From Anas platyrhynchos (lineage: Eukaryota; Chordata; Aves; Anseriformes; Anatidae): 64,000 nt of DNA. The stretch lies in contig NC_092589.1 in the NCBI RefSeq assembly GCF_047663525.1, positions 105,150,001 to 105,214,000 of the forward strand, given 5' to 3'. Numbering within the stretch: the first letter of the stretch is position 1; each line of letters opens with the position of its first letter. A program made the position numbers and the translations under genes. The notes under the pieces are model-generated. The model was not told the origin of the DNA. It worked only from the letters and a program-made list of their open reading frames with translations, and ran no database searches. Shown here one piece after another: positions 1,458 to 63,808 of this stretch.

Positions 1458-1570
1458 TTTAGTGTGGAAAGTCGTGTGGAAAGTCGCGGGGGGGAGCGGG
1501 GCGAGAGGGAGGAGGGGAACCTGGCCCCAAGGTTTGGGGGCTGAGCCGCCGGGGAGCAGCACGGGGGAAA

Positions 1571-2545
1571 GGCGCTTTTTACCTCAGGAACAGCCTTCTT
1601 TAAATTTATTTACCTCAGGAACGGGCTTTTTATTTATTTATTTACCTCAGGATCGGCCCTTTAAATCTCAGGAGCAGCTTATTTACTTATTTATTTATCT
1701 ATTTATTTATCTACTTATTTATTTATTTAATGTTCCTCTAGAATGAACTTTTTAACCTCAGGAACAGATTTTTATTTATTTATTTTCCTCAGGAACAGAC
1801 TTTTTACCTGAGGAATGGCCTTTTTTTTTTTTTTTTTTTACCCCAGGAACGGCTTTTTATTTATTTATTTTCCTCGGAAACATTTTTTTTTTTTAACCTC
1901 AGGAACGGCCTTTTTTACCTCAAGAACGGCATGTTATTTATTTATTGTCCTCAGAAACTGACTTTTTAGGTCAAGAACGGCTTTTTATTTATTTATTTAT
2001 TTTCCTCGGGAATGGACTTCTTACCTCAGGAACGGCCTTTTTTTTTTTTTTTTACCTCAGGAACGGCTCTTTATTTATTTATTTTCCTCAGGGACGAACC
2101 TTTTTACCTCGGGAATGGCTCTTTATTTATTTATTCTCCTCAGGAACGGACTTTTTACCCCAGGAACGTCCTTTTTTTAACCTCAAGAACGGCTTTTTAT
2201 TTATTTATTTTCCTCAGGAACGTACTTTTTACTTCAGGAACGGCCTTTTTTTACCTCAGGAACGGCTTTTAATTTACTTATTTTCCTCGGGAACTGACTT
2301 TTTGCCTCAGGAACGTCCTTTTTTTAACTTCAAGAACGGCTTTTTATTATTTATTTTCCTCAGGAACTGACTTTTTACCTCAGGAACGTCCTTTTTTTAC
2401 CTGAGGAACAGTTTTTATTTACTTGTTTTCCTCGGGAACTCACTTTTTACCTCAGGAACGGCTTTTTTACGTCAGGAACAGATTTTTTTTTTCTTTTTAC
2501 CTCAGGAACTTTTTTTTCTTTTTTCCTTTTTTTTTTATTAAATCT
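1571..2545. repeat. Minisatellite upstream of GRHL1
   Basis: Nearly 1 kb of imperfect tandem repeats alternating a CCTCAGGAACGG core with T-runs and TTTATTTATTTATT blocks. The exact CAGGAAC core recurs about twenty times, with roughly a dozen variants (CAAGAAC, CGGGAAT, CGGGAAC). Unit length is irregular, about 25-50 bp. The array ends within about 20 bp of the CpG-rich GRHL1 promoter. ORFs across it are low-complexity Phe/Leu/Tyr strings and are not coding. Confidence 0.9.
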
Positions 2546-2906
2546 CGGGAGCACCCCTGTCAGCGTGAGGACGCCCCCTCTCCTCACCTCCCCCCTCCCT
2601 CCCCTCAGCACCGAGCCCCTCTCACCCCCCTCACTGCCGCCGCCCGTCCCCTCCGCTCCCCTCAGCGCGGTCCCGCCCCCTCCCTCCCTTCCAGCCAATG
2701 AGGAGCCGCCGTCTCCTCCCCGCCGCCCTCGCTGGCCAATGGGAGGCTTCGATCGGCGCCCGTCCACCTGCGGCCGGCGGCGCCACCTGAGCGGGCGAGA
2801 AAAGCCGCCAGAACCCGTCGGTGCGGCGGGCTGCGCGCTGCTCCCTCCGCTCGCCCCCGCTCCCTCCCGACCCGCTGGGCCAGTTCTGCCGCCTCCTCCT
2901 CTAGAC
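2546..2906 (+). promoter_or_regulatory. GRHL1: GRHL1 CpG promoter and 5'UTR
   Basis: GC- and CpG-rich, with no TATA box. Forward CCAAT boxes lie at 2695-2699 and 2736-2740. Two CACCTG E2-boxes lie at 2765-2770 and 2784-2789, each followed by GC-rich sequence. The start codon follows at 2907. The transcription start cannot be fixed by eye; the downstream part is probably 5'UTR. Confidence 0.7.
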
Positions 2907-5900
2907 ATGACCCAGGACTACGACAAGTGAGTGCTGCGAGTCCCCGTGGGGCGGGGAAAAAAAGAAAAAAAAAAAAAAAAAGGGGTGGGGGTGTGGGGGG
3001 GAGAAGCCCCTCAGGGGGTGCCCCCCCCCCCCCCCCCTCCATCTTAGGGCCGCGACCTGAGGCGGGGCGGCGCGAAATGGCGGCGGGGAGCCCCCGGCCG
3101 CCTCAGGGGGCTGAGGGGGGGGGGTGTGGGGGGGGACGGGGCAGCCCCGCGGCCGTCCCGCCCCCTTCCTCCTCCTTAAAGGCCGCCTGTGGGGTGTGCG
3201 CCCCCTCCACACGCGTCCCCAATGCCCGGCTGGGGGCTGTGAGCCGGCCCCATGGACTTCTACGAGGCGCACCCCGCCGGGAAGGTGGATTTCGGCAGGT
3301 AACGGGGCGGCCCCGCTTCGTCCCGTGGGTTCCTGTGGGGTCGGGGGGGATTTGGGGCTGTGAGAGGTCCCCTCCGCTGCCAGGCTTTGGGCTTCGCCTC
3401 AGCGGGTGCTGCTCCTCGCTGTGGCCGGGATGGGGAAACGGCGGAGAAGCCGGCGGCTGGAGGGTTCGTGGTGGCCAGCCCTGCTCCTGCTGCCCCCCTT
3501 CCTCCCTTCCTTCTGTCCCCCTCTGGCTCCTGGCATCGCAAGGATGGGTGAGAGGCACCGCACTCCGCTGCTTTCACCTCCCTTTTTCTCCCAAATGACC
3601 TGACTCGAGGAGTTACCCGCTTGTTGTGGATATTCCCGGTTCCTTTCATCGCGTTGTGTAAGAACAGGAGGATCCTTATTCACCCCTTGAGAGAATCCAG
3701 CTTTATCTCTCGCTGTGCGCTCCTTGCTGGGAGGTGGATGTCCCCCATACAACCTGTAATTCAGCACACGTGTGGCACTCCACACACAAATCCCCACAAA
3801 GACCTATAAAAGGGTTTGGTGGAGAGCTCGTCTCTTTTGTTATTTGCTTTTTTTTTTTTTTTTTTTTCCCAGCTACACAACGCTGTTTTATAGGTACAAA
3901 GTGCTCTTCTATATCCTGGGAACTCCCACTCGCTTAAGCCCCGCCGAGCTGTCCCCCTGGAGCTGCGGGGCTGCTTGTGTAAGCGATAAAGGACCGAGCG
4001 CATCGTTTGCAGGGTGCTCGGCAATCTTTGGGGGAGAAGGTGGTGATAAATGCAGGAGCGCTAAGCTGATTACAGTGATTAGAGCGTTTCACAACTTGGC
4101 GTTTCACAACTTTTTGTGTTCGTAGTGTATTTCAATCTCTGAATGCATCTGGGTGAATAACAGATGAAAAGAATCCTTATCTTCCGGGGAAGGGGTATGA
4201 AGGTGGTGAGGATGTGTTTTGGTGGGTTTTTGTTTGCTTTTTTTTCTTTTTTTTTAACAACCTGTTATCGATCTATTAAGGATTGGGGCTTGGATAATTT
4301 GAGGAAATCCAAATATCCCCTGTTCCACCCAGTCTAGCAAACTAATGTTGCGATTGCACTGGAAGGAAAACTATTTGAGCTAGTCTAAAAAGTCAGATTA
4401 AAAAAATGTTTTCTTGAGCTGACTTTAAAGATGAAGCACGTGTCTTACAAACAGGACATGAATTTGTCAAGGTGTCTAAGCTGGTAGGGCTCTGTGGTTG
4501 TCCTGCTTTCAGTTATGGGCTGAAAGTCCACGTTTTGTCCCTTTCTCCTTCGCAGCAGTAGCAGAATGTTCAGAGCAGACGCAGTTTCTCAATGCACTAC
4601 ATCATCAAGGAAATAACCAAGGTTTTGTCTCTTTCCCAGTTCTAACTTGTCATTGACTCAAGCTGGGCTCACATCTCCTCAGCAGTCACCAGACAGCAAA
4701 TCTTTTGGTGTTTTAATGTGGGCTTGGAGAGCACGGGCACCTTCTGAGGGCTCTGGGAGAAAGATGTTTTGTCGGTTCACACTTTCTAGTTCCACATGGA
4801 AACTTGAGCAGGTTGCGGCTCGCTACCATTACGCAGGATGTGCTGGAGGTTTTGTAGGTGGTAGGCCAGCAAGCACGTATAACTTCTGGGCTGGATTCAG
4901 AGCCTTAGCAGGTCTGGGGTGCTCTTCAACGGCCCTGTGATTGTATATGGGCTGGTGTAATCCCGCTGAGTTTGCTGACGTTAATCCCGATTTACACTGA
5001 GCACGGGTGAGATCAGAATTAGGTTTCTGGGCTTTTTGTGTTGACTAATCCTTGCAGCGCACTGAATCAGAACTTGAACCCTGTGAAACTGGGGCAGCTA
5101 ACTTGAAAGAACTTCAGGAATGTTTTTCACGACTTCTAACAGGTGCTTTTTTCCTTTTTCTTTTTTTTTTTTATGCTTCAAGTAAAAGACCCGTGCTGGT
5201 TCTTCAGAATGACTCTCTCTACTCCCAGAGACGTCCGTACACCAGCGAAGATGAAGCCTGGAAATCCTTTCTTGAAAATCCCCTTACGGCAGCTACCAAA
5301 GCTATGATGAGCATCAACGGCGACGAGGACAGCGCGGCTGCCCTCGGACTGCTGTACGATTACTACAAGGTAGATTGGCGTGGGCGTGCTTCTGGCAGCC
5401 CCTGGAGCTTTTATTCCACCGGTAGAAAAAGCATCGGTTACTTGATGACAAAGAGTCGTGGCATGGATTTTGCTGAAGCCATGAATTTATCGCGAGGACT
5501 TTAAAATATAGGGCTTTAAAAAAAAAATCCACAAATTTCTCCTGAAAGATGGTTAATTTTTAGCTCAGTAAAATAAGACCTGGATCTTGCTGTGATGGTT
5601 AAAAAAATCCAGTAGCACTTTACTCTGCCTCTGCAGAACCCAGAGTCGTTAAATAGTCTCGATGAATGAAACTTTGGAGCGTGTCCATGTCTGAATGCAG
5701 ATCTGCATTTCCTTTTGCTCGTGTGATCCCCGTTCTGGTGGGGCCGCTGGTTTTTGTGCTGCCGTGAAGCTACAAAGGCAGAATTTTTGCTTGTGGGTGG
5801 GGGATTGTCAGCCAGGAGGAGTTGGTGCCTGCTTCCCTCTAACCTTCAGCGAGCTGTTAACGTGTTCATCCCTTGGCAGCTCTGTTTGTCTCCCCTTAGC

Positions 5901-8900: not shown

Positions 8901-11900
8901 AAAATGAAAAGTTCTGTTTATTTACTTTTTCCCTTGCCTTTTGAAGGAACAACATCCCGAATGTGACGGAGCAATCGCTTATTTCCGCCGGGGAAAACAG
9001 AGTCCAGGTCCTGAAGAATGTGCCGTTCAACATCGTCCTCCCGCACACGCCCCAGATGGGCATGGACAAGAGGGGCCACCTCACCACCCCTGACACCACT
9101 GTCACCGTCTCCATCGCCACCATGCCCACCCACTCCATCAAAACGGAGACCCAGCCCCATGGCTTCGCCGTGGGCATCCCTCCGAGCGTCTACCACCCCG
9201 AGCCCCCCGAGCGGGTGGTGGTCTTTGACAGGAACCTCAACCCTGACCAGTTCAGCTCCAACACCCAGCCGCAGAACTCCCAGAGACGGACGCCGGACTC
9301 AACCTTCTCTGAGACCTTCAAGGAAGGCGTGCAAGAGGTACAAAAAAAAAGACATACTCCGTGTGCGTTTGTCTTAATGATATGCACTGAAAATGGCAGT
9401 AACCGTGGTTTTATTTATTTTAAAGCCACACATTAAGGAACTGTGTAGCTGCTCCCTGTCTCTGAGATTTGGGGAAGCTTTAAAATGTTGCCATATGTTG
9501 ACTCAGAAGGCTTGTGAGATGTTGTGCTTAGTTGACACCCAAAAGTTTAGGATTAAAAACCTGCTCTGGTGTCCTGTGGGTACAGACCAAAAATCAGCTC
9601 TTATCTGATGATCAGTTTGCCCGCCAGAAGTTCTGTGGCAACAGGTATCTGTTTAATCTTGACTTTTCTTGTTGCTGCCGTGTTAATTGTTGTGTTTTGT
9701 TTTGTGTCTGCACCAGGTTTTCTTCCCTGCTGAACTGAACCTCCGGATGACCAACATGAATTCAGAAGATTATGTTTTTGACAGTATTTCTGGGTAATGC
9801 TTTAATGTCCCCGTTGGCCTTTACTCTCTTCTTCTCTTAGAGTTGGTTTTCCTGTGAGGAAGCGGTGCAGCTCGCTCCCTTCTGCCCTGAGTCTCTGTCA
9901 GGCTCTGGGTGTGAAAAGCAGCACCAGCAGCTTATTAGCTTGTGAATTTAATTGAATTGCTAATAGCTAATGGATAGCTTTCTGTTCCATGAGAGCAGCT
10001 TGCTGCTCTATGATGGAACAGAGAGCTTCCAGGCCGGCCTGCTGCTGTGACTTGGAATTTAGCTTGCCAAGAACCTCTCTGAAATCTTCATTCATGAAGG
10101 GAATAGTTTTAAAAAGGGGCTCGTCCTGTTTTCCAACTTCCTCGCCTGTTGATGGCTCTGTGAGTCAACTAACGACTTTGGAATTTCTCCAAATTAAATG
10201 TAAAACATTTAATCAGCTTTCCAGGAAAATGCCTTAGCAATCGCTGTCCTCTTGGCTTCACAGGAACAACTTTGAGTACACCCTGGAGGCCTCCAAGTCT
10301 CTGCGACAGAAGCCGGGGGACAGCACGATGACTTACCTGAACAAAGGCCAGTTCTACCCCATCACACTGAAAGAAGTGAGCAGCAGCGAAGGAATCCATC
10401 ACCCCATCAGCAAAGTGCGAGTAAGTGGCAGCTTTTGGGGTTTCTTGGGAGGGAGGGCATGCATCTTGGTAGCTTAAGCTATCCAAAAACAAATCCCAAC
10501 TGGAGAATCAGCACACTGGGCAGCTTTTACCCGCTCTGTCACCTCAGTGCTCGCTCTTCCACTGTCCACCTCCTTCCAGACCAACCCCTCCTGGCTCTTC
10601 CTGCTAGGAAGCGGTGTCAGCACTTGCGTGCAGGTGATGCAACCCCTGCAATGAGCGGAAAACCCAACACCGAGGAGGACTTCCAAGACAAACGTACTCC
10701 ACGGCCTTTTCTTTCTCCTCTTTGCGTTGGGTTTTCTTTAATCTTCTGCCCTCCCCCTCTCCTTTCAGAGCGTCATCATGGTGGTGTTTGCTGAAGACAA
10801 AACAAGAGAAGATCAGCTCAGGCACTGGAAATACTGGCACTCGAGACAGCACACAGCCAAACAAAGATGCATTGACATAGGTAAAGGAACACTCTTCTTG
10901 CTGATGTCAAACTCCAGCCTAATTCCTTGGCACGGTTTGGCTTTCTGCTAAAGCTTTGTTATTTTAAGCAACCTTTGGATGACGCTTTCAACTCTCCATA
11001 GCTCTGCTGAAAGACTGGAGAGAGCTGCTGATTGTTTCGAGCTGGTGTAATTTTTAGCACCCTGTAGAGGGTTTATTTGGAGGGGTTTATTTCGTTCAGG
11101 AGCAGGCTGAGTTCAGAGCCCTGCGTTGGGAGATGGAATTTGGAGACAGTCATTACAGGTGCTTTGGCCTGTCTTGGTGGCTGTAGCTAAATTGCAGCCC
11201 ACGGTCTCTGCAGCAGTCTTAAATACCGTGTATTTAATGATTTCTTCAAATCCTTGTGGAAATACCTCGATGCTAGTGATCCTCCTTCCCCCAGCTCTGC
11301 TCACAGCTGCCTTTTGGTGCCCGGCAAAAAAAGAAAACACTGCAAATTTTCACTCGCTTCTAGACAAGGCAGTGGCTGGCTGGCGTCCAGCCTCCTCTGG
11401 CTGAAGGCTGGCTTGTGCTCCTCGCCTTCCTTCTGCGAATAAAAGCAGGGATTAATCACTTGGCACTTGGAGCAGACGCGCATGCAAATCTCTGTTAGTG
11501 AAGGAGTTTTACTGCGAGCTTGTTCCTCTGCCATCCGGAGCAGAGTTTCCCGTACGCAGCAGGTTGTGGCATGGGGCGTGCAGTGTCTGATGTCTGCTTT
11601 TCCTCTAGGAGAAGCACTAGGGATCTCCTGGGAGCCCCCTATTTTGCCCCTCCCTCCTGTTTTTTTTTTTGCTTTGTGTGTGTGCTTGGTATGAGAGCTA
11701 TTTGCAGCCTTTTTAATGATCCCTTTTTAAATACAGTTCAGCTTCCTTTGCCCCCAAGGGGTTGCTGAGGAGTTGCAGTTTCTAGCTGCTGTGTGTGTGA
11801 ATTAAGAGCTCCTCCGGACGGTATCGCCTCTCCCTCTCCCTCACGCCTCTCCTTTCTAACAGCTGACTACAAGGAGAGCTTCAACACCATCAGCAACATC

Positions 11901-34600: not shown

Positions 34601-37600
34601 CTTTAGGAAAAAGGCTCCTGACGACATTTGGCTTTGCTCTCATTGCTCTAAGAGAAAGCACAGGTTCCCATTATGAAACGGGGATTTTAATTAGCTTTAT
34701 GCTGTGTTTCTACATGCAGCCTGCTGTTTCTCCAGAGCATTGGCCTACTCTGACTGACTAATGTCAGCTGAATCACTTTTTTTGTTGTTGTTGCAATTTG
34801 TGTTGCAATAAACGTAGATAAAAAAAACAAAACAACAACAGCAAAAAAGGCAACCCTCTGTGCCATCGGGGTTTTAGAAGGCCCTATTTCAGCTGGTAGA
34901 CTTCTTAGGTCAGAAGAAAGGAACAGCAGAGGAAAAAAGGCTGAGGTGGCACCGCAGCTGGCCGCTGGGCTGCTCCTCTCTGGCTCCTGGCACTCAGGAT
35001 TGGAACTGTCTCTTGAGCAGCACAGGAGCCAGGCGTGGGCTGAGTTTTTGGTATTAAAGGAGGAAGGCGAGGTGGTGGCAGCAAGAGCCCAGAGGGAAAG
35101 GAGTAGGTGAGGGGAGAGAGCAGTTTGTGTGTGTTTATCCTACTGCCCTGCCAGCTGGTGGGGGATTATTATTAAAAGACTGAGGCCTTGCTGGAAGGTA
35201 GCAGTTTAAACGGTACAGGATTGCTGTCACTGCTCTGCTTGCTGCGAACAGCAGAGCCCTCGTAGCCTCTTAGAGCTGCTCCTGTTGCTGAGGAGGAGAA
35301 ACCAGAGGGTTTTTGTAAGGCAGTGAGTAGACGTGGAACAGTCATACACAGCTTTACAGTCTGCCTCATTGCATTCCTGTTATTAGACTGCTTTTACGCC
35401 TGTTCCCAGTGGCCATCAGGTGAAGCAACGCACGCTTTAACTGCTTTCCCCAGCAAGCAGGCTCTGACATTCTGGGGAGGGGGCCAAATTTTCTTTTTGC
35501 TTTAAAAACCGTAGAAAACCGCGCTGTGAAGCTGCAGCGTTGTGTAACGGCGCTCTCTTTGTGCAGTGCATGACCCCGCCGCACAGCCCGGACTTCGTGG
35601 AGATGTCGGCCGCGATGCTCCTCTCCTCGCAGCTCACTTACTCCAAGCCGAGGACTGTCATGGCAAACACGGCCTCCTGCTCGCTCACCTCCACCACCGC
35701 CGCGTCCCCCGTGAGCAAACCGTCAGTGATAAGCGTGGAGAGCCGTGGGGCCGAGCCCGCCGCGCCGCAGCCGTGCCGGGCCATGGCCACGAGCGTGATC
35801 CGCCACACGGGCGACAGCTCGGCCTGCCTCCGCCTCGAGAAGGCGGCCGAGTGGTGCGGGGCAGCCGAGCGAAGACACTGCAGAGCGCCCCAGGACGCGT
35901 GCGCTGCCGCCGACGTCCTCAGCAAAACCTCCCCGGAGCATCCGCCCCACGCACATGACTGCGATGACCCCACCACCGATAAAGGGCAGCTTCCAGCCCG
36001 CCCCGCTTCGCCGCAGCCCCACGTGGCAAAGAACTGTGACAGGGACTTGCAGAAAAGAGCCACCCCGGTGCCGCCCGTCCCCGTGTCGAGCCCCCAGGTC
36101 GTGTGTCAGATCTCCGTCCCCTTGAGCAGACAGAGCAGCATGATCAATGCTTACGTCAAGCCTCCTGCTCCAGCGGTCTCGACTCCGATGAAACCCATCC
36201 TCCCGCAGACGGCCCCGCTTTCCCAGCCCGTGCTCATGGGACCTTCCGTGCCTCAGGGGACCGTCATGTTGGTTCTCCCCCAGCCTGCTGTCCCGCAGGC
36301 ACCGCCGTGCCCGCAAACGGTCGTGACCGTGGGGAGCACCAAGTTACTGCCCCTTGCTCCAGCCCCCGTGTTCATCGCTTCTGGGCAAAGCTGCACCCCC
36401 CAGATGGACTTTTCTAGGCGGAGGAACTACGTTTGCAACTTCCCGGGCTGCAAGAAAACCTATTTCAAGAGTTCCCACCTCAAAGCCCACCTCCGCACCC
36501 ACACGGGTGCGTACCGGGGGGATGAGCCCTGCCTTCGGGGTGCCGAAATGCACGGCTCCTCCGGGAGGGGTGGGAAGGGGAAGGGGCAGGTGATCGGGAA
36601 TCTTGTGCTCCTCTCGGAGAAGAGAAGAATGCTCGTTCTTCACGGGCGGGCAAAACAAGCCAGACTTTGTTCGGAGACCTCAGCTGACCCCGTAGCGTTA
36701 GCTGGCTTTCGCGTGCTGTAGTTGGAGCGAAGCGCAGCCCGCTGCGTGCGTGTGTGTGGATCGGGGTGGATCTCTGCCACCTGGACTAGGCTGAAGGGGA
36801 TTGTGCAAGCTTTTGTTTTGAGTGTGGAGGGATCTCCCAGCTCCAGTGCAGGCAGTTGCCATTCGGTTTTGTAAAGTAAAAGGAAAGAGAGAAAGTCAAA
36901 TGCCGCATGTTTTCCTAGAGCTTTGTCTAGGCTAAAGGGGTGTGCGTTAAGGTTTTGGGCTACTGTGCTGGGAGGCAGCGCTGCTGCAGGAATCTAACTG
37001 TTTTCACTTACTTCCAGAATTCCCTTTGTGTAAGTAAATGAAAGTTAATTACAATTAATAAGCGCTAATTTGCTCTGTAACACCTGGTTAGCGTGGAGGC
37101 AGTATAAATGTATTTTACTTACCCTTTTTCTAGCTCAGAGCTTCTATTACAACTAACTTCTGAGCTCTTGGAAGGGACTATTTTTGATGTTGAAGGCCTA
37201 GGATAGCAGATTATTGGTATAGAACAGCTCATTTAAACATTTGTCTAGTTTGTTCCTTGCCTTACTTCCCCCACCCTCTGGTTTATTAGAAGGCAGCTTC
37301 CATGGCAAGGCTTCCCAGCAGTTCGCCAGCTTGTCCGGACAGTTCCTCTGGGAAAAGAGCTTAAACTCTGTGTGAAGCCGATAATCCGTGCAAAGCAGAG
37401 CTCGGCTGCTTCCGTGCGGGTTTGAGGGAAGCGCTGCAGGCTGGTGAGTGAACCTGGTGCTGCGGGACAGCCACGGGCTGGCAGCAGGTGTCTGCTGAGC
37501 CCAGAGCATTGCTGATCCGCAGGGAAGCCAGCCTGCTGCACGGCACCAGTGGGCAGAGCAGCTTCAGCTTGCTCCTGCTTCATCCCGCTCATTCAGCTGC

Positions 37601-38647
37601 CACCACACTCACCCAGTGCAGAGCTTCCCCCCTGCAATGAGGACAGAGCTGCTGCGGTGCATCCCTTCCTCCGGCCTTCTTGTTCTGCTCCAAAGGGATG
37701 CCGTAAATCTGGTCATGCGGTAGATGTTTATCTGGAGCTCTGCGGGTCATGTTGCTTGGGACGGTTCCGATGTAAAGCAGGCACTGAGGTGACGCTGAAA
37801 GCCTTCCTGGCTGCTTTCAGTGCCTGGCAGCCAGAAATGCCAGCGGTGTCTGGGCATGCAGGCGTGGAGGATGTTCCTTGGTACCCCACGTGGGTATGCA
37901 GAGCTAGAGCGCTTCGGCAGGTCTGGGAGGTTGGATTCCAGGTTCCTTCTTGCCCACAATATTTGCTGATGTCGTGTAGTGGTCACGGAGCTGTGGCCAC
38001 GTAGGAGGGACGGGCTCAGAGGGATTTGCTTCTGGTTTAGTCGATAGATAATGTTGCTTTGTGAAGAATCATTTTTCTTTAAACTGGGTTTTGGACAACT
38101 AAAAAAAATAGGCTTGATTAAAGGTCATTAGAATAGATGTGAGGAAATAAAAATCATTGGTCTTGTTTCTGCTTATCTCTGAAACTGGAATTAAGCTTCC
38201 ACTTCAGCAAATGGTGACTTCATGCATGAGCAGTTCAGGGAAAAAGGTCAGAATTTTTTTTAGGCTAGAACTTATAAGTTAGTTCTTCGATGAAATGGAG
38301 CATAATGACAACAAGTTGTGTTTCTTTCGTGTCCTGCAGGAGAAAAGCCTTTCAGCTGCAACTGGGAAGGCTGCGACAAGAAGTTTGCCCGCTCGGACGA
38401 ACTGTCCCGCCACCGCCGAACTCACACGGGGGAGAAGAAGTTCGCCTGCCCCGTGTGCGAGCGCCGCTTTATGCGCAGCGACCACCTGACGAAGCACACC
38501 CGCCGCCACATGACCACGAAGAAGGTGCCCAGCTGGCAGACAGAGGTTGGCAAACTGAACAGAATCGCCACGGTGGAGAAACCCAAAAGCAGCAGCAGCG
38601 CTCTCGGTATGCTCATCCCCATGCCGCCAGCTGTCTGCCAGGGCTAG
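31623..38647 (+). CDS. KLF11: Krueppel-like factor 11 (TIEG2), 4 coding exons
   Basis: Nuclear zinc-finger factor that binds GC/CACCC boxes and mostly represses by recruiting SIN3-HDAC; a TGF-beta early-response gene. Exons: 31623-31664, 33929-34183, 35567-36506, 38340-38647. All are GT-AG, phases 0/0/1 close, and the product is 514 codons (human 512). The first exon gives 14 residues ending in AAA before [10 protein letters not shown]. Exon 2 carries the SIN3-interacting motif, [13 protein letters not shown] at residues 45-57, and the proline-directed block [12 protein letters not shown]. Exon 3 is a long Pro/Ser-rich regulatory region. Three C2H2 fingers at the C-terminus have ligands C389/C394/H407/H411, C419/C424/H437/H441 and C449/C452/H465/H469; the intron 3 junction falls in the first linker (HTG|EKPF). 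The C-terminal tail matches the KLF11 form (EVGKLNRIA). Long minus-strand ORFs over exon 3 are composition shadows. Confidence 0.97.
31800..32568. repeat. GC-rich minisatellite in KLF11 intron 1
   Basis: About 770 bp of imperfect tandem units, each near 20 bp, of two alternating kinds: CCTGAGGGGATATCGGGA and CCTGAGGGGCTGGGGTCG. GATATC recurs about a dozen times. The array starts about 135 bp after the first coding exon, so it sits inside the transcribed CpG-island shore. It is purine-biased on the plus strand. Confidence 0.92.
32569..33928 (+). other. KLF11: Rest of KLF11 intron 1
   Basis: A second very CpG-rich block (about 32569-32790) is followed by ordinary sequence, with the acceptor CCTTTAG at 33921-33928. 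The CpG block could host an alternative start or enhancer, but no splice-compatible alternative coding exon was found. Confidence 0.5.
34385..34515 (-). repeat. CR1 LINE fragment, KLF11 intron 2
   Basis: Contains GCCCCTGCTCCAGCAGGGCC, AGAGCAGGGTGCCCAG and CCTCTCTGGGCAGCCTGG, which match the reverse complement of the CR1 3' region. It is diverged and has lost the terminal octamers. Antisense to KLF11. Confidence 0.8.
34516..35566 (+). other. KLF11: KLF11 intron 2, distal part
   Basis: Unique sequence with a short A-rich stretch near 34810-34850. No RNA or coding feature recognised. The acceptor CTTTGTGCAG precedes exon 3. Confidence 0.5.
36507..38339 (+). other. KLF11: KLF11 intron 3
   Basis: Begins GTGCGT in the first zinc-finger linker and ends TCCTGCAG. 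Read-through of the donor would add an unrelated tail and stop at 36719-36721, giving a protein without fingers 2 and 3. No other feature seen. Confidence 0.6.
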
Positions 38648-40999: not shown

Positions 41000-41781
41000 T
41001 GAACAGCTTATTTGCCTTTATTGAGAGTTATGCAGAATACAGATCCGCTTCTTTCCCTTACACAGATTTCAGGAATGACAAAGAAGCCAAAATACAGCTG
41101 CGCCCTGCTGTTTCCCCTTGCGCTTGCACACGCTTTGTGCAGATTTCATCTGGCACCTTTTACAGTTCAGCTGAAGGCAGAAATAAGGTACTTTTCTACG
41201 CCTGATAATAAGCAGCTACTCATAGCACATTAAGATGCAGGCAAAACAGAGGCAGAAACCCTAAAATACCAGGCTTCCCTGTCAGGGAATGCTGAAAACA
41301 TACGATTTTCCGTGGCGATCCAGCCTTTCTGATGCAGCTAATGATAAATTGTAGTGATTTTTCTTCTAGACTAGCTATGGAGGAGAAGAAACGCACGGGC
41401 AGGCCAGGGGCGATGGCTGAGAATGGGTGGCAACGAGCTGCTCTGCAAGGCCCTCTCTGAGCAGATGGCCATGGCGAGGTGGCCCTGGGGACGTGTCTCC
41501 TGCTGGGACTGGGGGGGAAAGCCCTTGTGCTGCGGGTACAGCACCCGCACTGCCAGGACAACAACAAAAAAAAGGTTTTCCTTCAAAGCACCATCTCAGC
41601 AGAGCTCTAGTACGCCTTCGTTGGGAAATATGGTTTTCTTCAGGTCATCCTCCGTGTCTCCGGAGCAGTTGCGCTGCCTCTCGCCCATCCTCTCCTTCTT
41701 CCATCCTCTTCCTCCTCCTCCTCCTCCTCTTCCTCCTGGCTGTGGCCTGTTGGCAGCAGCTTCCTGCCCCCCGCTTTGGGC
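41000..41781 (-). other. CYS1: CYS1 3'UTR (probable)
   Basis: Lies between the CYS1 TGA and the AATAAA at 41017. It includes a CAG/GAG-rich purine stretch on the minus strand just after the stop (about 41700-41740). Confidence 0.55.
41017..41022 (-). terminator. CYS1: CYS1 poly(A) signal
   Basis: AATAAA on the minus strand (TTTATT on plus), about 760 nt after the CYS1 stop codon. It is the first canonical signal downstream of the gene. Confidence 0.6.
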
Positions 41782-41887
41782 TCAGCGGCCGTACTCCCGC
41801 TCGATGCTGGCCATCAGCTCCTCCTCTGCGCAGTCGTAGGACACGGCCGGGCACCCCGCCGGCTGCTTGCTGCTCCCTCCTGGGCAC
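41782..41887 (-). CDS. CYS1: CYS1 exon 3 (conserved C-terminus)
   Basis: Acceptor CTTCACCAGCAG, then the last 34 residues and TGA. The SYD...EELMASIEREY block is diagnostic of cystin, and it is hidden because the longer ORF over this stretch is in a different frame. Confidence 0.92.
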
Positions 41888-44800
41888 CTGCTGGTGAAGG
41901 GCAGGAGTTACTGCGGGCATGAGGGGGAGCCCAGCTCCGAAGACACAAAAAGACACTGATTTCATCTTGTTGTGAATAGAAAAGTCGCGATGCAAGTGGC
42001 TCACTGAGACAGAGATACTCTAACGCATCAGATTTCCAGCTCTGGCTGACGTTTGCTAACACTTGGCATCTATTTCAGCCGGTGAGTTCATGAAAGTGAA
42101 GCCCTCGCAATGCTGCACCTCATACTCCCGTAACCCCATAACCCTCTGGTGAATTATGGCCAGCTAAAGCTCGCCATAACCTTTACACCAGTTCCTCGCC
42201 TCGAGGCTTTCTGCAGAAAGGTGTTGGGACTATTTTCTGTTTGTTTATTTCAGGATTTGCCTGCCCTCTGGCTTCCACCCCTTTCGATAGCGCTGGACAT
42301 TACCTGTAGGAACGGCTTGCGTTTCCCCAGGTCTGGTATTCTGCACTTCTGCTTTGGAGATGTGTAAGATAAAAGGTGGTTTTATTTGTCCGGGCTCTCA
42401 TGGGCCTGAACAACCCCCTCCAGGTTTGGTCTCTGCGTGTGGGCTCTGCTGGGCCCACGATTCACTGGGAGGAGCTCAGGTATTAACACATCTTCATAGA
42501 CCTGCAGCTCGGTGCGTCTGCTTTGTGCCCTCCAGGAACAGGTAAGCGAGAAATGAAGGGTTTTGTAGGGCAGTCGGTTGGTTACCAAAATAAGGTTTTC
42601 ATATCTGATGGCATGGCTCTAGCTCTATCACCATCAGTATCTGTGGGTCTAAGGATGAGCTCCATCTCATCCTTGGCTTTGGGTGAATTTGGTGTTAGCA
42701 TCCCTTGGGGAAAAAAACTGAGAACCCTGGTTATGGGATGAGAGCTGCCCCAAAGCAGGTAAGCGTGGAATGAGAATTGAAGGAAAATGCCTGAATTGAA
42801 GGAAAGTGCCCTGAACTGAAGGAAAATGCCCTGAACTGCTTTTCTAAGGAACCTTTCTCATATCTGGGAGCTGCTTTCACAAACCCACAGCCATCTTTGG
42901 CAGCCAGGAGCGGTTCTCCTTGGGCACAGGGGTGTCTGTAATGTTTCTGAAGCAGGCACTTGCCCGTTGGAGCAAACTGCACGGAGGCAGCTGCACCTTT
43001 TAAGACAAAAAGCCCAGCTGGCCCGGCCTGGCAGTGCTCGTGCCATGCCCTGTGCATGTCAGGAATAGTTTGATGTTTTCCCGGGAGCCACCTGGCCCCC
43101 AGCTGGCGTGGCGGCCGCATCATGTGGGCCTGGGGCTATGGACATTGCACCCTGCCCTCGGCTGCAGCTTCTCCTGGCAGCTCCCGAGGAGGATTTAGCC
43201 AGCGGGCTCTGCTGAGCCTTCCTTTTCTTCCTTTCTCCTCTCCTGAAGGGCTGTGAGCTCTCTGGTTTCTGCTGCAGCAGCGAATAAGGGAGGAAAGCTG
43301 GCAGCCAGTGCCCACGAGCCAACAGCTGCAAAGCAAATTCTTTTGAATTTGAAAGAATCGGGAAAAGGAAATGGAGCAACCCGACTTAAACACCCAGCTG
43401 GCACCTGATTTATTGATATAAACCCTGCGCTGGGACAGTCCAACTAATTTCATGTTACACGGTGGGTCGGGTCAGAGGCAGAGCTCTTGTCAGCTCGCTC
43501 ACGGACCCACAGAAGAGCCATTGTTTCTCCTAACGACTGCTAATTCCTCACTGTTAATTATTCTTCATCCCCTGGCCTGGCTGGTGACCCCCGAGCATTA
43601 AAAAGTCTCCAGGTAAAATTCAAGCTGGGTGAAATATGTGTTTTTAGGAAGGCAAAAGCAAAGCCCACTGCCACGCAGGCCCCGGAACCAGGCGGGATAA
43701 AGGGGGCAGCGTTTACTTCATGAGCAAGGCCCTGCCCGAGTGGGCAATCTCTGCTATTGTGGCAAATCTATCTGCCGTTTAATTTGGAGAAATGGCAGTA
43801 AGTCCAAAAAAAAGTGGCTCCATCTGCTTCAAAAGAGAAACTTCTCCACCCTGAGGACAGCTGTGCAGGCCTCAGAGGTTGTCAGGGCCTGGCCGCACGG
43901 AGGCCTGAGCGTGGCTCCAAGCCAGAGCATGGGCAAGGGACTTCACGAGGCCCTCCCAGCCCCATCCTTCATCTCAGGGGCTTGTTAAACGAAGTCTGGA
44001 TTTTATTTTGGGAGCCCCAGCACACCCTGCATCTCCGGGAGTGTCTTCAGAGAGGGCTAAGGCAGGAGGGACGCCACCACGTCGAGGCACTGCCTGCTGA
44101 ACCCAGCCAAGGGCTCTGAGACTTCCCGGCTCAGAAACCAGCAGGCCAGGACGTCGAGGGAAAAATTATTAAAGATCTGGCTGTTTTGGGGCAGGGAGAG
44201 AGCTGAGAAGGAGCAGTGCTGGGAGGAGAAGAGCCTGGTGGGACAGCAAAGGAAAACAGGCCAAGGAAACCCATCAGGATGTCTCTGGGTATCTGAGTGC
44301 TAAAAAGTTATTAACAGCTTGGAGGGAGTTAAAAAAGCAGCAGTAAGGATGATTTTAGAGGCAAAGCAAAGCAATTAAGGCAGGAGGAAAGCAAGATGTG
44401 TGGTCCCGTCCAGAGTTGGGAAGGCCCAGAGTCACAGGATGGCCGTGGCTGAAGGGACCTCCAGAGGTCAGCCAAGTTAATCAAGTCAGCCCCAGTGCTA
44501 TGCCTGGAAATGAGGTGGGATGAATCCAGGCCACGGGTTTTTATCATTCTGCTGAGGACGGGCAAGTCCGGGATTAATCATTACAATGCCTTCTGCAAGA
44601 CCTCATGGCTGGGAAATGGGTCAAAACCACGGCTGGGCAACTCTGCTCGTGACACGGGGCTTGGGAGCAATTAGAAAATCATTATAACGATCCTGGGCCG
44701 TGTCATCCGACCTGTGCACTGCCACGCTTAATGGGGTCCCACGTGAATTTTTGCAGTCCGTGCCCACCCCCAGCAGCCACCACGGGTGCCTGCTCTCCTG

Positions 44801-47762
44801 GCCGTGGTTCTGCAGGGTCTCCTTTTTGCTCCCCAATCAACATTTATTTCTTTAATTGGTTGTGCAGGAATTCCTCCAGCTGGGCAGTCCATTGGGATGT
44901 TTGCTGCTCTACATGAGGGAAGGGAAGGGAAGGGAAGGGAAGGGAAGGGAAGGGAAGGGAAGGGAAGGGAAGGGAAGGGAAGGGAAGGGAAGGGAAGGGA
45001 AGGGAAGGGAAGGGAAGGGAAGGGAAGGGAAGGGAAGGGAAGGGAAGGGAAGGGAAGGGAAGGGAAGGGAAGGGAAGGGAAGGGAAGGGAAGGGTAGGGA
45101 AGGGTAGGGAAGGGAAGGGAAGGGAAGAACTCACTCATTGCTGACATTGTTGTTCTCTGTGTCGGGCGGGCTTCCAGGTAACACAGCCTTGAAGAGAACA
45201 AACATCAGGTACCTCAGTGGCAACATCTGGGAGCTGTGTTCAGCTCTAGGAGGTTGTTCTTACACCCCAAACAACCTCTGTGAAGATGACAGAGGTGCAA
45301 GAGCATCCCTATAGCAGCAACAGTCCTGCTGGCTCTCCTTCAGCTTTCTGGGCACCCGGCTGGCTGCCGAAGCCACCATGTGTTACGTGCCAGGCACAGC
45401 CCCAAAGCCAGGATTTGGTGCCTGGAAACAGCTCCTGGGGCTGGCTGCACGAGCTGATGGCCAGCAAAGAGCTCCCTTCTGGTCACGGAGCATCACCTCC
45501 CAGCAGCCTCCCACTGCCAACAAAATGTTCCACATCCTGGAGCATGCCGCATCCTCCTCATCCTCATCCTACTCCTTGTCCCCACCAGGATGCCGCTGCC
45601 CCAAATCACCCTGCACAGGGTTTTCAGCCCTTTCCGCCATGGGACCCCTCCTTCCTACACTGCGGGTGGGTTTGGCTCATGCTTTGCTGCCTTTTTCCCC
45701 CCCCTTTTTTTGGCTGACTGCTGCACGTTACGAGCCGTACGTGTCGTGTGGGTGGAAGGCAGAATTAATTACTCATCGGGACAGAGCGGCAAGATCTGCT
45801 TCCCTCTGCAAAACCCGCTCCCACCTTCTCCCCGGGATCCGTCAGCACCGAGGCTTCTTTCCCAGGAAAGTGGGAGCATCAAAAGCAGCCCGCTGGCCCT
45901 GCTGGCACGGCAGGCAGCACCCTCCAGCGACGCGAGAAATGCTGTGGGTGGCCAAACAGCACCTCGGGTACAAAATCCAGGGGTAATGGGTACGGGAGGG
46001 AAAGGACAGGCCCCTCTCTGCTCCATCCGCCGGCTGGGAACCCGTGCACAGTGCTCGTTTTGGGTCAGGGGTGGTGGCGGGATCAAAGTGACCCGTGCTG
46101 TGTCTGGACTCGGGGGTTGGGACACGCTTTTTGGCCATGAATAAAAGCAGGAAGGAAAGGCAGAGATAAATTGCGAGATCTGGGCGATCAGATTTCTGCG
46201 GCCAGAGGCCTGGTTTGGCGAGGGCAGGAAACCGCATCTGCCGTCGGCTGGGGGCGTCCGGCAGCAGGGTGATGCACTGAGGGGTGGAAAACGCCTTGTT
46301 TGGGCTGAATAAACCAGCTTTTGGGACTTAACCAGGGCTTTGGAGACATGCGGCACCCCAGCAGAAGATGGTTAACGCAGGCTCTGCCTGTGTCACTGCA
46401 GCACCCCGGCTGGGCGGTGGATTGCTGCCCTCCTCTCCTCACCCCACATCTCCTCCTGCCCCCCAGCTCACAAACCTCCCCATGGGAAGGGTGGGACGGC
46501 GGCTTGCACAACACCCTAAATCCTAACTAAATCCTAACTAAATCCTAAACCGCATCCTGCGAGCAGGCACGGAGCCCATGGGGCTGCTGCCCGGGAGGGA
46601 CCACGGCCACCTCGGCGCAGGCAGGAGCCCAGCTCTGCCCTGCAAACCTCCCCCTGATGGTACGAGCTCTCTCCTTTTGCTATTCCCAAGGCTTTCTTTC
46701 TTTCAGTTTTGTTTTGTTTTGTTTTGTTTTTTCCTTTAAGACTCGCATAAAACTGCTTTTTGTGCTCACCAAGCCTCCCGCTCGCCGACTGGGTTTGCGT
46801 GCAAATCGTTGCCGTGCCATGGGCATGCGGTTCGGTCATAGAAAAAAAGCAAAACAACTAAAAGTATCGCATCCTAAATACTTATTTCTGTCAGTAAATC
46901 ATGGAATCATACGATCTTTTTAGGTTGGAACAGACCCTAAAGACCAGCAAGCCCAGCACTGCCAGTCCCACCACTATACCACGTCCCTAAGCCCCGTTTG
47001 CCCCTCTCAGGACCCCCAGTGGGAACATTTCACCCACGCTTTGGGGCTGGTGGTGCCCCTGCTTGGTTTTTTTTTTTTTTCCTTACAACCAGGACACAGC
47101 TCCCACAACAACAACTTCCAGCGAAGACGAACGCTGCCAGCAATTTTTGGCCCCTGCTATAGGAACACAGGGGACCCACACAGATCGTGGAGCCCAGCTG
47201 CACACGGGGCCACCCCAAAACCAGACCCTGTGTCTGACAGCGTTACCCAAACCCTTCTTAATCCCTGTGGGTCCCTTCCAGCTCGGACACTTCACTATTT
47301 CTAAACCCCGCGGCGATTTCCGAGCAAGGGGAAAGAAAACAAATCTCTGCTTTTCCCCTCCCCGGAGGAAAATCCAGGAAACGGAGCAGTTCCTGAACCA
47401 GCTGCAGCGGCCGGGAACCATTTGGGGCCGGTTCCCTTTGGGGTAATACAAACCCTATTTATATTTGGGGGCTTCCCGAGGAAACAACGGGGACGAGGAG
47501 CAACTCGGGGTAACACCGAGCCCCCAAGGGGGGCTGCGACCACCCTTGGGGTTTGAGGGGGAGAGGATTTGGGGTCGCTGAGGGGCCCGGGGGGGGCACT
47601 TACCTCCCTCGGGGGGCTGCCGGGGGTGGGCAGCGCCGCCGCCCCCTCGCCCCCCGCCGCCGCCTCCGCCGGGCTCGGGGTCGCCCCCGGCCCTCGGGGG
47701 TCGCCTCCGCCGCCTCCCCCCGTGGCCACCGGGCCCCGGCGGCGGCTGCTGCCGCTGCCCAT
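41782..47762 (-). CDS. CYS1: Cystin-1, short bird form (3 exons)
   Basis: Cystin is an N-myristoylated protein of the primary ciliary membrane; its loss causes the cpk polycystic kidney mouse. Exons on the minus strand: 47762-47604, 45187-45135, 41887-41782. All are GT-AG and phases 0 and 2 close (AAT GA + G), giving 105 codons plus TGA. The N-terminus MGSGSSRRR keeps the Gly2 myristoylation signal and the following basic cluster of mammalian cystin. The C-terminus VSYDCAEEELMASIEREYGR is nearly identical to the mammalian end (recalled as ISYDHSEEGLMASIEREYCR), and the middle has NNNVSN where human has GNVSE. Its position between KLF11 and RRM2 on the opposite strand matches human. It is odd in being about 50 residues shorter than human: the acidic LLDELL segment has no counterpart in exon 1, and an exact AxEGG ciliary motif is absent (nearest AAAGGEG). 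A missed exon in intron 1 is possible. Confidence 0.88.
42774..42838. repeat. 20-bp tandem repeat, about 3.3 copies
   Basis: Units of GAATTGAAGGAAAATGCCCT type at 42774, 42793 and 42813, with a partial fourth at 42833. Inside CYS1 intron 2. Confidence 0.9.
44430..44482 (-). repeat. Short CR1 3' remnant, CYS1 intron 2
   Basis: TCACAGGATGG...TGAAGGGACCTCCAGAGGTCA resembles the reverse complement of the CR1 terminus (TGACCTCTGGAGGTCCCTTC...). Only about 50 bp are recognisable. Confidence 0.55.
44916..45126. repeat. Pentanucleotide array (AGGGA)n / (TCCCT)n
   Basis: About 42 nearly perfect units. Only two point variants are visible (T at 45095 and 45105). It is in CYS1 intron 2, where the transcribed strand reads (TTCCC)n, ending eight bases from the exon 2 donor. 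ORFs of repeating Gly-Lys-Glu-Arg or Pro-Phe-Ser-Leu across it are artefacts. Confidence 0.98.
45135..45187 (-). CDS. CYS1: CYS1 exon 2
   Basis: 53-nt exon with acceptor TGTTCTCTTCAAG and donor GA|GTGAGT, encoding AVLPGSPPDTENNNVSN. It joins exon 3 in phase. The TTCCC array begins eight bases into the following intron. Confidence 0.8.
46516..46548. repeat. 11-bp tandem repeat, 3 copies
   Basis: Three perfect copies of CTAAATCCTAA in CYS1 intron 1. It superficially recalls telomeric CCCTAA but is too short and has a different period. Confidence 0.9.
46897..47025 (-). repeat. CR1 LINE 3' fragment, CYS1 intron 1
   Basis: Starts AATCATGGAATCATACGATC, the diverged terminal repeats, then AGGTTGGAACAGACC and CCACCACTATACCACGTCCC. 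This is the reverse complement of the CR1 3' end, so the element is in the same orientation as CYS1. Confidence 0.9.
47604..47762 (-). CDS. CYS1: CYS1 exon 1
   Basis: 53 codons from ATG to the donor GAG|GTAAGT, phase 0. It encodes the myristoylation/basic start and then a Gly/Pro/Ala-rich region, and lies in a CpG island. Continuing past the donor gives an unrelated proline-rich tail. Confidence 0.88.
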
Positions 47763-47950
47763 GGGCTCGGGGAGCGGAGCCGGGGCCGGCTGAAGGCTGG
47801 GGCCGGCCCCCGGGGCAGGCGGAGGGGGGCGAGGGGGCGGTCAAGAGGCGAGGGGGGAGCGGCGCCGGGCGGGGAAGGAGCCCCCGGGGAGGCCGGGAGG
47901 AGGGGGAGAGAATGGGGAAAATGGGGGAAGGGGGGATATGGGGGAGGCTT
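47763..47950 (-). promoter_or_regulatory. CYS1: CYS1 CpG-island promoter
   Basis: Very GC- and CpG-rich sequence directly upstream (minus strand) of the CYS1 start, continuous with exon 1. No TATA box seen. Confidence 0.6.
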
Positions 47951-50900
47951 GCTGTCTTTTCTGCCCTCTCTCCCTTTTCCCTAGGGGTCCAGGGGGTGGT
48001 CTCTATTCGGGGAGGGTCCCCGGAGGCTGCCACAGCCCCGAGAGCAGCCACGGGTTGGGATCAGCCCTTCTGGGGGTGTCCCCCAAAGCCTCCCCAAAAT
48101 GGGGGAGCCAGGAGGGCGACACATTTACGGATCACTCCTGTGAGACTCCCAGCCACAGCAGGGGACCCTGGAGGGGTTCTGGAAACTCAGGGTGCCCAGC
48201 ACCATGTCCAGGGCTGGTGACACGCTCAGGGTGACAGAGGGGATGCTCTGGGCACGGTCCCGAGCGGTGGCACTGCCTTCAGGGCCTGGCCACCAGCACA
48301 GCTCCCGGCTCCCTGCAGGCCTGGAGCCTCCTGGAAAGTTTCCTGGCGGCCCCGATGGAAAAAAAATTCCCTGCCTGCGCACAGCCTGCGTCCCACGGCC
48401 AGCTGAGCCTGTCGGGTTTGGGAGCAGCTGGGGACAGGGAGTGTTGGGTCAGCAGCGACCCCAAATGCTGCCGGGGTTTATCCAGGAGGCCAGGAGATGT
48501 TTCCCTGCTGCAAAGTCTGCCGGGGACTAAAGTGAAGATATTCAGAAAGTTAAAAGCCTGGTAAGGCCATGAATTCGCAGGAAAAGCAGCAAAAATCGGC
48601 TATCAAATCCCTTTTTATTTTATTTTGATTTTTTTTTTTCTGGTGGCTTTAAGCACGGTTTCCCAGCAGGGCCGGTGTTTAGCATCCTGGCTGATCTTCA
48701 GGAGCGAGGGCTGGCAGCTGCGGGTGGCACCCAGCCAGCGGCCGGGACACGGCCTCGGGGGAGGCAGCGGCTCCGGGGCCCTGCTGGGGGATGCTGCTGC
48801 CACAGACTTTAACATCGCTGTTATCCAGCAAAGCCACGAGGGCTGGTTTGCCCCGTTGGGGTATTTGCTGGGCTTTGCTGGACTTCCGAAATCAATGGTT
48901 GAAGCAGAGTTGAGAGGTGCAATTGTCTGGGCCAAATCTCCCTTTCTGATCGTATTTTCAGGTTGCTCATTCCCTGAATATGAGAATAAAAAGGAGAATA
49001 AAAGAGAATGACTGTCCTGACCCGTGTCCAAAAATGATGACGGCAGCTGGAGAGCAAGGAGGGATGACAGGGCACGGCGGGGTGCCAGCGGTCACGATCC
49101 CTATTGCAAACAAGGAGTGTGCTTGCTGGGTGAACTAGCAGCTCCTCTCACCATGATAACCAAAACAGGGCCGGGGAACTCTGCTTTCTCATGTTGTCTT
49201 CCCACCAGAGCTTTTCCAGGGCACTACAGGTAGCACGTTGAGCAAGCTGACCTTGTGACAAGAAGCATTACGCTGCATGTTTTGGTTCTGCCTTCTTTTC
49301 TGACACTGGATTTTCTACAAATCTTCAACAGATAAATTCCCTCAGCATAAGAGCAGTGGAACAAAAAGGATTTAAACCCAAAGTTAATGTATATATCATG
49401 TCAGATCTGCTCTCTGCAGAGCCATCGGGAAAACCTCAATCTGTCCCACTGCGAACTGCGGGGCTGGTGTCACCCTTCGGTGAGCAGGTTTATTTATTAA
49501 TCTGCCTGTCTAGCATTAACTCGTGTGCAGCAAGGAAATGTGTGCATTGCTCAAATCGGAGCCTGCCTCTACCACGCAACGGGACCGCTAGCCTGGCCTT
49601 CAATTCCTTTTCCCTGATGTAGTCTTCACCTGGGTTTGCTACAGTTCTGGCACCAAACCTGCAAAAATAAAAATTAAAAAAATACAGTTGTGATGGTTCT
49701 TCAGGCTCTGATGTGGGGATCTCACATCCTGTGCCTCTAAACCCCAAGAAAAAAAATATCCGTGAGGTGGAGGCTGGTGGGACACAGAGAGGAGAGGTCC
49801 TGGGACGGATGGTGGGAGCTGTGGGTTGGTGCCCCCAGCCCTGCCCCATCCCTGGGGACAGCAGGGCTCAAGCAGCTGCTGGGCATCCCCTGAATCAGCT
49901 GAGATGGTCTGGAAAGGTGGGAGGAAAATATGAGCCTACAAGGTGGGTGTTTTCCAGCAGGGGAGGCCGGTTCCCTTGTTGAGGAGCTGTCCCACAGCAG
50001 GATGGAGCCCAGGACACGCTGGAGGCTGCCCCTGTGTAATTAGCGGAGCTGGGCTTTGGCTCAGGACTGGGGTTTGACTCATCAGAAAACCTGCTGAGAA
50101 CACGTATTTAAATAAATAAACATAAAAGCCTATTTTTAAGAGTTGTCCTTTCAACACCTCTCGGATTTCGCTGCACCCTGAGCACTGTCAGGAAAAGATT
50201 TCCCTTCCTGCAGCCCACGGGTTAAGGGCAGGGCCCTGCTTTGCCCAGAAGTCCCAGCCCAGGGAAGGGTTATGTTTTATGGCTTTCACCACCATGTCCT
50301 TGTGCATTTTTCCTGTTGGTACCGCAGAAGGCTGTGCCATGGGAGAGCTTCTGCCACCAGCTGCTGTGGGGTGTGTGTGCTGGCCCTGCTGCCTGAGCCG
50401 AGGAGCTCCAGAGGCCTGTGGGTGTATGGAAACACCAAGCGCTGGGCCTGGGGGCTGAACCTCCCCTCCCACTGCAAACTTTGCTCTGGTTCCAGTTCTG
50501 GGAGCTGTTTCTGCCCCTCAGTGTGGCCGAGGCTGAGGTCTGAAGACCGGCTGGTCCCTGGTGTGGGGCAGGCTGTGGGATTTCAGCCGGGCAAGGCCTT
50601 GCTGGGCTTGGACCTCAGCTCCCTCAGCTGAGGCTTGCTGGGACCCCACAGAGAGCAATCCCTCAGCTGTATCTCATCCCAGTGCCACCAACACTTGGGA
50701 CAATCTCCCTAATGGGACAAGCTGCAGCTCGCAGAGGTCTGGGGTGACACCAGGCGGGTGACACCAGGCCTGCTCTCACAAGGCCTGGGCAGCATCTGAC
50801 TCAGTTCCCCAGGGGTTTTAACCCGCAGGGAGGAAAAAACCAGCTGAGGTTAATATCCCACCAGCAAGCAATGAGTCTGACCTAGTATTCAGCCACCCGC

Positions 50901-59569: not shown

Positions 59570-63808
<4,239 letters not shown>

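What the first reader, a model, noticed from the sequence alone, without database searches (positions are those of the whole stretch)
41782..47762. Hidden three-exon CYS1 encoding an unusually short cystin
Seen: three small minus-strand exons join in phase into about 105 residues with a myristoylation-type start (MGSGSSRRR) and the cystin C-terminal signature (EELMASIEREY). Known: mammalian cystin is about 158 residues with a central LLDELL-type segment and an AxEGG ciliary motif. Neither is visible here, so this lineage may have a reduced cystin, or another exon remains unfound. Short GC-rich exons such as these are easily missed in bird annotation.
Basis: partly seen in the sequence, partly recalled or inferred. 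Interest (0 to 1): 0.75.

Follow-up and report, generated by a model that had tools for sequence, protein, structure and literature searches.

The report
Shortened bird version of cystin gene
What looks like a bird genome carries a normal-looking CYS1 (cystin, a kidney cilium protein) gene in its usual place, whose first exon appears half as long as the human one and lacks two mammalian motifs; the gene itself is ordinary, and its shortness still needs RNA and other species to confirm.

Summary
Minus-strand exons 47762-47604 (159 nt), 45187-45135 (53 nt) and 41887-41782 (106 nt with stop) join in phase into 105 residues. The gene is very probably CYS1. It lies between zinc-finger (KLF11-like) and RRM2 exons, starts MGSGSS and ends ELMASIEREYGR. 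Exon 2 is 53 nt, as published for human, and intron 1 falls between codons, as after human c.318. Exons 2+3 encode 52 residues, as in human (sequence recalled). So the whole length difference lies in exon 1: 53 codons against 106.

AxEGG is absent from the gene. No LLDELL-like segment stands clearly above chance in exon 1 or intron 1; one weak candidate near 47395 remains. The exon 1 donor scores best of 337 GT sites. In the 1.26-Gb host genome the product matches only this locus (exons 1 and 3). Not settled: loss here or gain in mammals, transcripts, and completeness of the 87% GC exon. The best-conserved part is the tail needed for necdin binding, although necdin is eutherian.

The parts
47604..47762 (-). 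CYS1 exon 1, coding part: 53 codons, MGSGSSRRR start (myristoylation-type), GC 87%, ends in phase 0 at GAG|GTAAGT
   Evidence: (donor rank 1 of 337)
47763..48000 (-). GC-rich 5' flank, probable 5' UTR and promoter side (74% GC, CpG o/e 0.59); no upstream ATG in 47763-48060
   Evidence: role inferred
45135..45187 (-). CYS1 exon 2, 53 nt, phase 0 in, phase 2 out (same length as human exon 2)
   Evidence: peptide not recognisable on its own
41782..41887 (-). CYS1 exon 3, coding part 106 nt with stop; conserved C-terminal tail SYDCAEEELMASIEREYGR
41017..41781 (-). Probable 3' UTR ending at the first AATAAA (41022-41017); two more AATAAA/ATTAAA signals lie at 40805 and 40743
   Evidence: inferred from the signals only
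36434..38509 (+). C2H2 zinc-finger exons, KLF-like (KLF11 by position), left neighbour
   Evidence: the name KLF11 rests on recalled motifs and recalled human gene order
60030..63044 (+). RRM2 exons tested here, right neighbour (the gene begins further left, and runs on to the right)

Best explanation
This is the CYS1 gene (about 6 kb, three coding exons, minus strand, the only matching locus found) of a probably avian genome, encoding a 105-residue cystin. Shown: intact joined frame, consensus splice sites, locus order, and exon 2/3 lengths and phases equal to human. Inferred: the protein is N-myristoylated at Gly2, held at membranes by the lipid plus the adjacent RRR, carried to the cilium by UNC119-ARL3, and acts there through its short C-terminal helix, the part best conserved. 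Its shortness lies wholly in exon 1: the low-complexity linker is 53 codons against 106 in human, and the mammalian AxEGG and LLDELL-like pieces are not seen there. If ciliary, it must be targeted by the lipid and UNC119 route or by another sequence.
For: Frame and sites. Donor 47604 first of 337. Human exon 2 of 53 bp and exon 1 boundary c.318 (PMC8440558 passages). Equal 52-residue exon 2+3 product with the split Glu codon at the same place, 22 of 52 identical without gaps, 0 of 20,000 shuffles as good (human sequence recalled, its residues 1-44 match the table in PMC11240719). Last 25 residues 16 of 25 identical to recalled human and 18 of 25 to recalled mouse. Exon 2 is the only candidate of its quality. 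Zinc-finger exons on one side and RRM2 on the other, both on the plus strand. In the 1.26-Gb genome the product has 2 matches at E up to 0.001, exon 1 and exon 3 of this locus (60 candidates scored). UNC119/PDE-delta family exons on three contigs (8 matches). A 14-residue C-terminal helix in an AlphaFold2 model of the exon 3 peptide. LLDELL-like probes: exon 1 best score 10, reached by 255 and 284 of 300 resamples; intron 1 best 23 and 25, reached by 43 and 19 of 300; the tail positive control was reached by 0 of 300.
Against: No transcript evidence. No Pfam or NCBIfam match, and only two chance-level PDB rows, for the product (I infer that these libraries hold no cystin). The exon 2 peptide is not conserved beyond chance. 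Weak Kozak context. The 87% GC exon 1 could be mis-assembled. The structure model is from a single sequence, five-model mean pLDDT 61-78. For the shortest LLDELL probe the best place near the gene (25) exceeded all ten 9-kb control stretches (20-24) and the plus-strand control (22), though the two longer probes did not stand out. That place belongs to an in-phase candidate exon, 47401-47291, which scores 23-25 by the later probes where the next-best unrelated one of 298 scores 16.
Confidence: 0.75

Rival explanations
1. CYS1 is fuller here, and the central segment lies on a further exon in intron 1, for example 47401-47291, giving about 142 residues.
For: 298 open phase 0-0 AG...GT candidates exist in intron 1, 15 with an LLxxL-like pattern. 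The one at 47401-47291 (and its shorter form from 47392) reads LVQELLRFLDFPPGRG and is by far the most similar of the 298 to the recalled mammalian segment (25 and 23; next unrelated 16). In one search it beat all ten controls for the shortest probe.
Against: Weak sites: acceptor 3.3, donor -0.2, together 3.1, against 12.4 for exon 2. The likeness stops after LLRFLD (FPP where mammals have ELL or QLL). Similarity at its level is reached by 19 to 43 of 300 resamples of intron 1. In human the boundary at c.318 puts the segment (recalled) inside exon 1.
Confidence: 0.12
2. Exon 1 is truly longer, but the assembly has dropped or collapsed part of this 87% GC, low-complexity exon.
For: In earlier bird assemblies missing sequence was biased to GC-rich 5' exons (PMC9516821 passages), and a human CYS1 exon 1 splice variant was not detected by exome sequencing, the authors suggest because of GC content.
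Against: The window has no N, the assembly has 42 contigs and so is probably long-read (inference), and the frame runs intact from ATG to a consensus donor.
Confidence: 0.12
3. The short form is ancestral or widespread in sauropsids, and mammals lengthened exon 1, so nothing was reduced here (compatible with the best explanation).
For: Total length already differs within mammals (mouse 145; human 158, recalled), whereas exons 2 and 3 keep the human lengths in this genome.
Against: None here; no outgroup could be read.
Confidence: 0.35
4. The exons are a decaying CYS1 pseudogene or chance pieces.
For: No expression evidence; the exon 2 peptide is unrecognisable.
Against: Intact frame, consensus sites and a tail identical at 16 to 18 of 25 residues with recalled mammals; no second locus matched in the genome.
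Confidence: 0.04

Closest known systems
Human CYS1 / cystin (158 residues, recalled; exon 2 of 53 bp and exon 1 to c.318 from PMC8440558 passages)
   Same: Three coding exons; exon 2 of 53 nt; phases 0 and 2; 52 residues from exons 2+3; MGSGSS start; C-terminal ASIEREY tail; place between KLF11 and RRM2 on the opposite strand (human order recalled)
   Different: Exon 1 is 53 codons against 106; no AxEGG (human AALEGGTR); one basic cluster RRR against RRRR and RRR in human residues 1-44; no LLDELL segment seen; ends YGR rather than YCR
Mouse Cys1 / cystin (145 residues, length from PMC8440558; sequence recalled)
   Same: Tail 18 of 25 identical, MGSGSSR start
   Different: Mouse has (recalled) ASEGG and LLDQLL, and 93 residues before the last 52
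NPHP3 and other myristoylated ciliary proteins carried by UNC119-ARL3 (UNC119 carriage recalled)
   Same: MGxxxS-type N-terminus; works like a lipid-anchored cilium protein (inferred)
   Different: NPHP3 also needs a coiled-coil domain (PMC6678300 passages); homology not tested

Membership tests
CYS1 orthologue | Locus between KLF11 and RRM2, opposite strand | tested here: met
   Zinc-finger exons 36434-38509 (+) and RRM2 exons about 60.0-63.0 kb (+) flank it; human order and the name KLF11 recalled
CYS1 orthologue | Three coding exons, 53-nt exon 2, intron phases 0 and 2 | tested here: met
   transcripts not available
CYS1 orthologue | Conserved C-terminal tail (last 25 residues, required for necdin binding in yeast two-hybrid) | tested here: met
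   16 of 25 identical to recalled human, 18 of 25 to recalled mouse; binding role from PMC3859662 passages
CYS1 orthologue | MGxxxS myristoylation start with polybasic stretch | tested here: met
   MGSGSSRRR by sequence; motif MGxxxS from PMC6678300; the modification itself not tested
Mammalian-type cystin | AxEGG ciliary targeting motif | tested here: not met
   5 AxEGG matches in six frames of the window, none in 41782-47762
Mammalian-type cystin | Central LLDELL/LLDQLL segment (recalled) | tested here: inconclusive
   Not in exon 1; nothing clearly beyond chance in intron 1, but one in-phase candidate exon with weak sites resembles it
Mammalian-type cystin | Two nuclear localization signals | tested here: inconclusive
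   Only one basic cluster (RRR at 7-9) in the product; the section read does not give the NLS sequences
UNC119-ARL3 cargo | Binding of the myristoylated N-terminus to UNC119 | not testable with these tools
   UNC119/PDE-delta family exons are present on three contigs; binding not tested

The most novel reading that the evidence does not exclude
This lineage has a natural minimal cystin: a lipid anchor, a short linker and the conserved tail helix, without AxEGG. It would then show that AxEGG is a mammalian addition rather than the core targeting signal. It would also show that the tail was constrained before its known partner necdin, a eutherian retrogene, existed, so the tail has an older partner, perhaps the ancestral MAGE protein or a ciliary one.
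Probability: 0.4. Interest if true: 0.5.

Novelty: new variant of a known kind. Interest (0 to 1): 0.32.

Why it matters
CYS1 loss causes recessive polycystic kidney disease in mice, and a CYS1 splice variant has been reported in one human patient (PMC8440558 abstract). A natural cystin without AxEGG and the central segment would separate what cystin needs from what mammals added, and would question necdin as its general partner. It also adds a GC-rich first exon of the kind easily missed in bird assemblies.

Tried and rejected
Search for the missing segment: regular expressions in six frames, BLOSUM62 probes with ten 9-kb control stretches, phase-compatible extra exons in introns 1 and 2 and exon 1 extensions (298 candidates in intron 1, 162 in intron 2, none of the 162 with an LLD-type pattern), resampled controls, and the listing of all 15 LLxxL-like intron 1 candidates. 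The candidate 47401-47291 (LVQELLRFLD...) is in phase as a separate exon. I ranked it low for weak sites and because its similarity is reached by 19 to 43 of 300 resamples, but it is kept as a rival. The best in-phase donors that would extend exon 1 score 2.6, 2.2 and 0.7 against 11.6 at 47604.

A ciliary X-box (RFX) consensus scan found none in the window. Rfam and tRNA scans found nothing. Pfam and NCBIfam have no match for the product; PDB gave two rows at E 0.74 and 0.75, a bacterial-type peroxidase, taken as chance.

The MAGE family search of the genome found nothing, but nothing rang in the 14 controls either, and the chicken gene is cut into small exons, so only an intronless necdin-like copy is made less likely.

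Papers: in the main texts of PMC6321700, PMC8449477 and PMC12954441 the terms CYS1 and cystin do not occur (supplements not read). In PMC9516821 the one 'cys1' hit is a residue number. In PMC4376690 (goose) the hits are cystine and residue numbers. Searches for cystin or CYS1 with birds (20 of 31 listed), KLF11 and RRM2 (0 found), cystin-1 with chicken (0 found), zebrafish (10 of 1,029 listed) and chicken plus cilia (5 of 5 listed) showed no title on non-mammalian cystin (listings, plus passages of PMC10952043). So I found none in print in this open library; that is not proof.

Full report
OBSERVATION. Joined, 159 + 53 + 106 nt give 318 nt and 105 residues, MGSGSSRRRGP...EELMASIEREYGR, with no internal stop. 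The first donor, GAG|GTAAGT, ranks first of 337 GT sites scored on the minus strand of 48500-40800; the second donor ranks 12 of 337, and the acceptors 27 and 16 of 582 (recalled weight matrices). The first AATAAA after the stop lies at 41022-41017, so a 3' UTR of about 760 nt is likely; two further signals lie at 40805 and 40743.

IS IT CHANCE? The tail matches 15 of 20 residues of recalled human cystin; the next best places in six frames of the window match 7 of 20. MGSGSS occurs once in the window and in 0 of 20,000 resamples of the local region; the looser MGxxxS...RRR in 9 of 20,000. Exon 2 is the only open 3n+2 candidate of 20-300 nt in 47603-41888 with two sites at least as good as its own. 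It has 53 nt, and 9 of 200 resamples gave such a 53-nt exon, but resamples held about 1.1 candidates of any such length on average. Against: its peptide alone scores 17 with recalled human exon 2, less than the 28 found elsewhere in the region and in 86 of 200 resamples. Human and mouse (recalled) themselves share only 6 of 18 residues there, so exon 2 rests on length, phase and sites together.

WHAT IT IS. The paper on human CYS1 gives exon 2 as 53 bp and the exon 1 boundary at c.318, a codon boundary (PMC8440558 passages). With 158 codons plus stop (recalled), human exon 3 must code 106 nt. The window has 53 and 106 nt with the same phases, and the codon split by intron 2 is Glu in both. The 52 residues of exons 2+3 align without a gap, 22 of 52 identical, 0 of 20,000 shuffles as good. 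The recalled human sequence agrees with the printed residues 1-44 in PMC11240719 (passages). Plus-strand C2H2 zinc-finger exons lie at 36434-38509, and RRM2 exons are seen from about 60.0 kb on. That is the human order KLF11, CYS1, RRM2 (recalled). The host genome has 1.26 Gb in 42 contigs, the window is C3:105150001-105214000, and the product has two matches, exon 1 and exon 3 of this locus (exon 2 is too short and too diverged to be found that way).

HOW SHORT, AND WHERE. All of the difference from human lies in exon 1: 53 against 106 codons. Mouse cystin is 145 residues, so length already varies in mammals. AxEGG does not occur in the gene interval (5 matches elsewhere in the window). No LLDELL-like segment was found in exon 1 in the three frames of the coding strand (score 10, reached by 255 and 284 of 300 resamples). 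In intron 1 the best scores, 23 and 25, are reached by 43 and 19 of 300 resamples, while the positive control, the human tail, was reached by none of 300. One place deserves telling against my reading. Of 298 open phase 0-0 candidate exons in intron 1, 15 have an LLxxL-like pattern, and the one at 47401-47291 (with its shorter form from 47392), LVQELLRFLDFPPGRG..., is clearly the most similar to the mammalian segment, 25 and 23 where the next unrelated candidate has 16. For the shortest probe it also exceeded all ten control stretches (25 against 20-24), though two longer probes did not stand out there. Its sites are weak (together 3.1, against 12.4 for exon 2), and the likeness ends where mammals go on with ELL or QLL. 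I keep it as a rival at 0.12. After re-checking I lowered the main reading from 0.8 to 0.75 and raised this rival from 0.10 to 0.12.

HOW IT MOST LIKELY WORKS. Cystin is myristoylated at Gly2, this is needed but not sufficient for the cilium, and AxEGG is described as necessary (PMC6678300 passages). Deleting the last 25 residues abolishes necdin binding in yeast two-hybrid, and a C-terminal fragment alone suffices (PMC3859662 passages). Here the anchor and the tail are kept. The tail is the best-conserved stretch, 16 of 25 with human and 18 of 25 with mouse (both recalled), and a single-sequence AlphaFold2 model of the exon 3 peptide makes residues 19-32 a helix. Exons of the UNC119/PDE-delta family are found on three contigs of this genome, so the carrier is probably present; which of the three are UNC119 was not determined. 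I therefore infer a lipid-anchored cilium protein that works through its tail, with the linker free to vary. None of these functional steps is shown for this protein.

A SIDE RESULT. MAGE subfamilies including necdin arose by retrotransposition at the eutherian radiation, and chicken has a single MAGE gene (PMC3112145 passages). The MAGE model found nothing in this genome. That search had no ringing control and would miss a gene cut into small exons, but it speaks against an intronless necdin-like copy. So the constraint on the cystin tail probably predates necdin. This is inference from one sequence and recalled mammalian ones.

WHAT IS NOT SETTLED. No transcript, no second sauropsid and no raw reads could be consulted. 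The search of the whole genome with mouse cystin did not complete in six tries. Reduction in this lineage and lengthening in mammals cannot be told apart; an assembly error in the 87% GC exon (about 0.12) and a missed exon (about 0.12) remain open. Missing sequence in earlier bird assemblies was biased to GC-rich 5' exons (PMC9516821 passages). Whether annotation has missed this gene could not be tested.

VERDICT. A sound find of an ordinary gene with one interesting feature. The gene is known; the short exon 1 without AxEGG would be a new variant if confirmed.

Noticed in passing
window 44916-45127: A 212-bp array of about 42 copies of a 5-bp unit (AGGGA on +, TCCCT on the CYS1 strand; 98% matches) begins at about the eighth nucleotide of intron 2, next to the exon 2 donor. 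It puts a long pyrimidine tract just inside the intron; any effect on exon 2 splicing is untested.
   Followed up: no
window 41704-41737: GAG/GGA-rich triplet run (TCC unit on +, 11 copies) in the presumed 3' UTR just after the stop codon.
   Followed up: no
window 5049-5501 and 8945-9433, + strand: Long open frames that I recognise from memory as GRHL1-like exons, as expected left of KLF11; Pfam gave no match for either, and PDB none for the second.
   Followed up: partly
window 1201-2927, + strand: Runs of diverged repeats that translate as LPQERPFLPQER / LFIYFPQER in overlapping open frames.
   Followed up: no
window 46905-47290, - strand: CR1-like retrotransposon motifs inside intron 1 (46910, 46930 and 47284; identification as CR1 recalled).
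   Followed up: no
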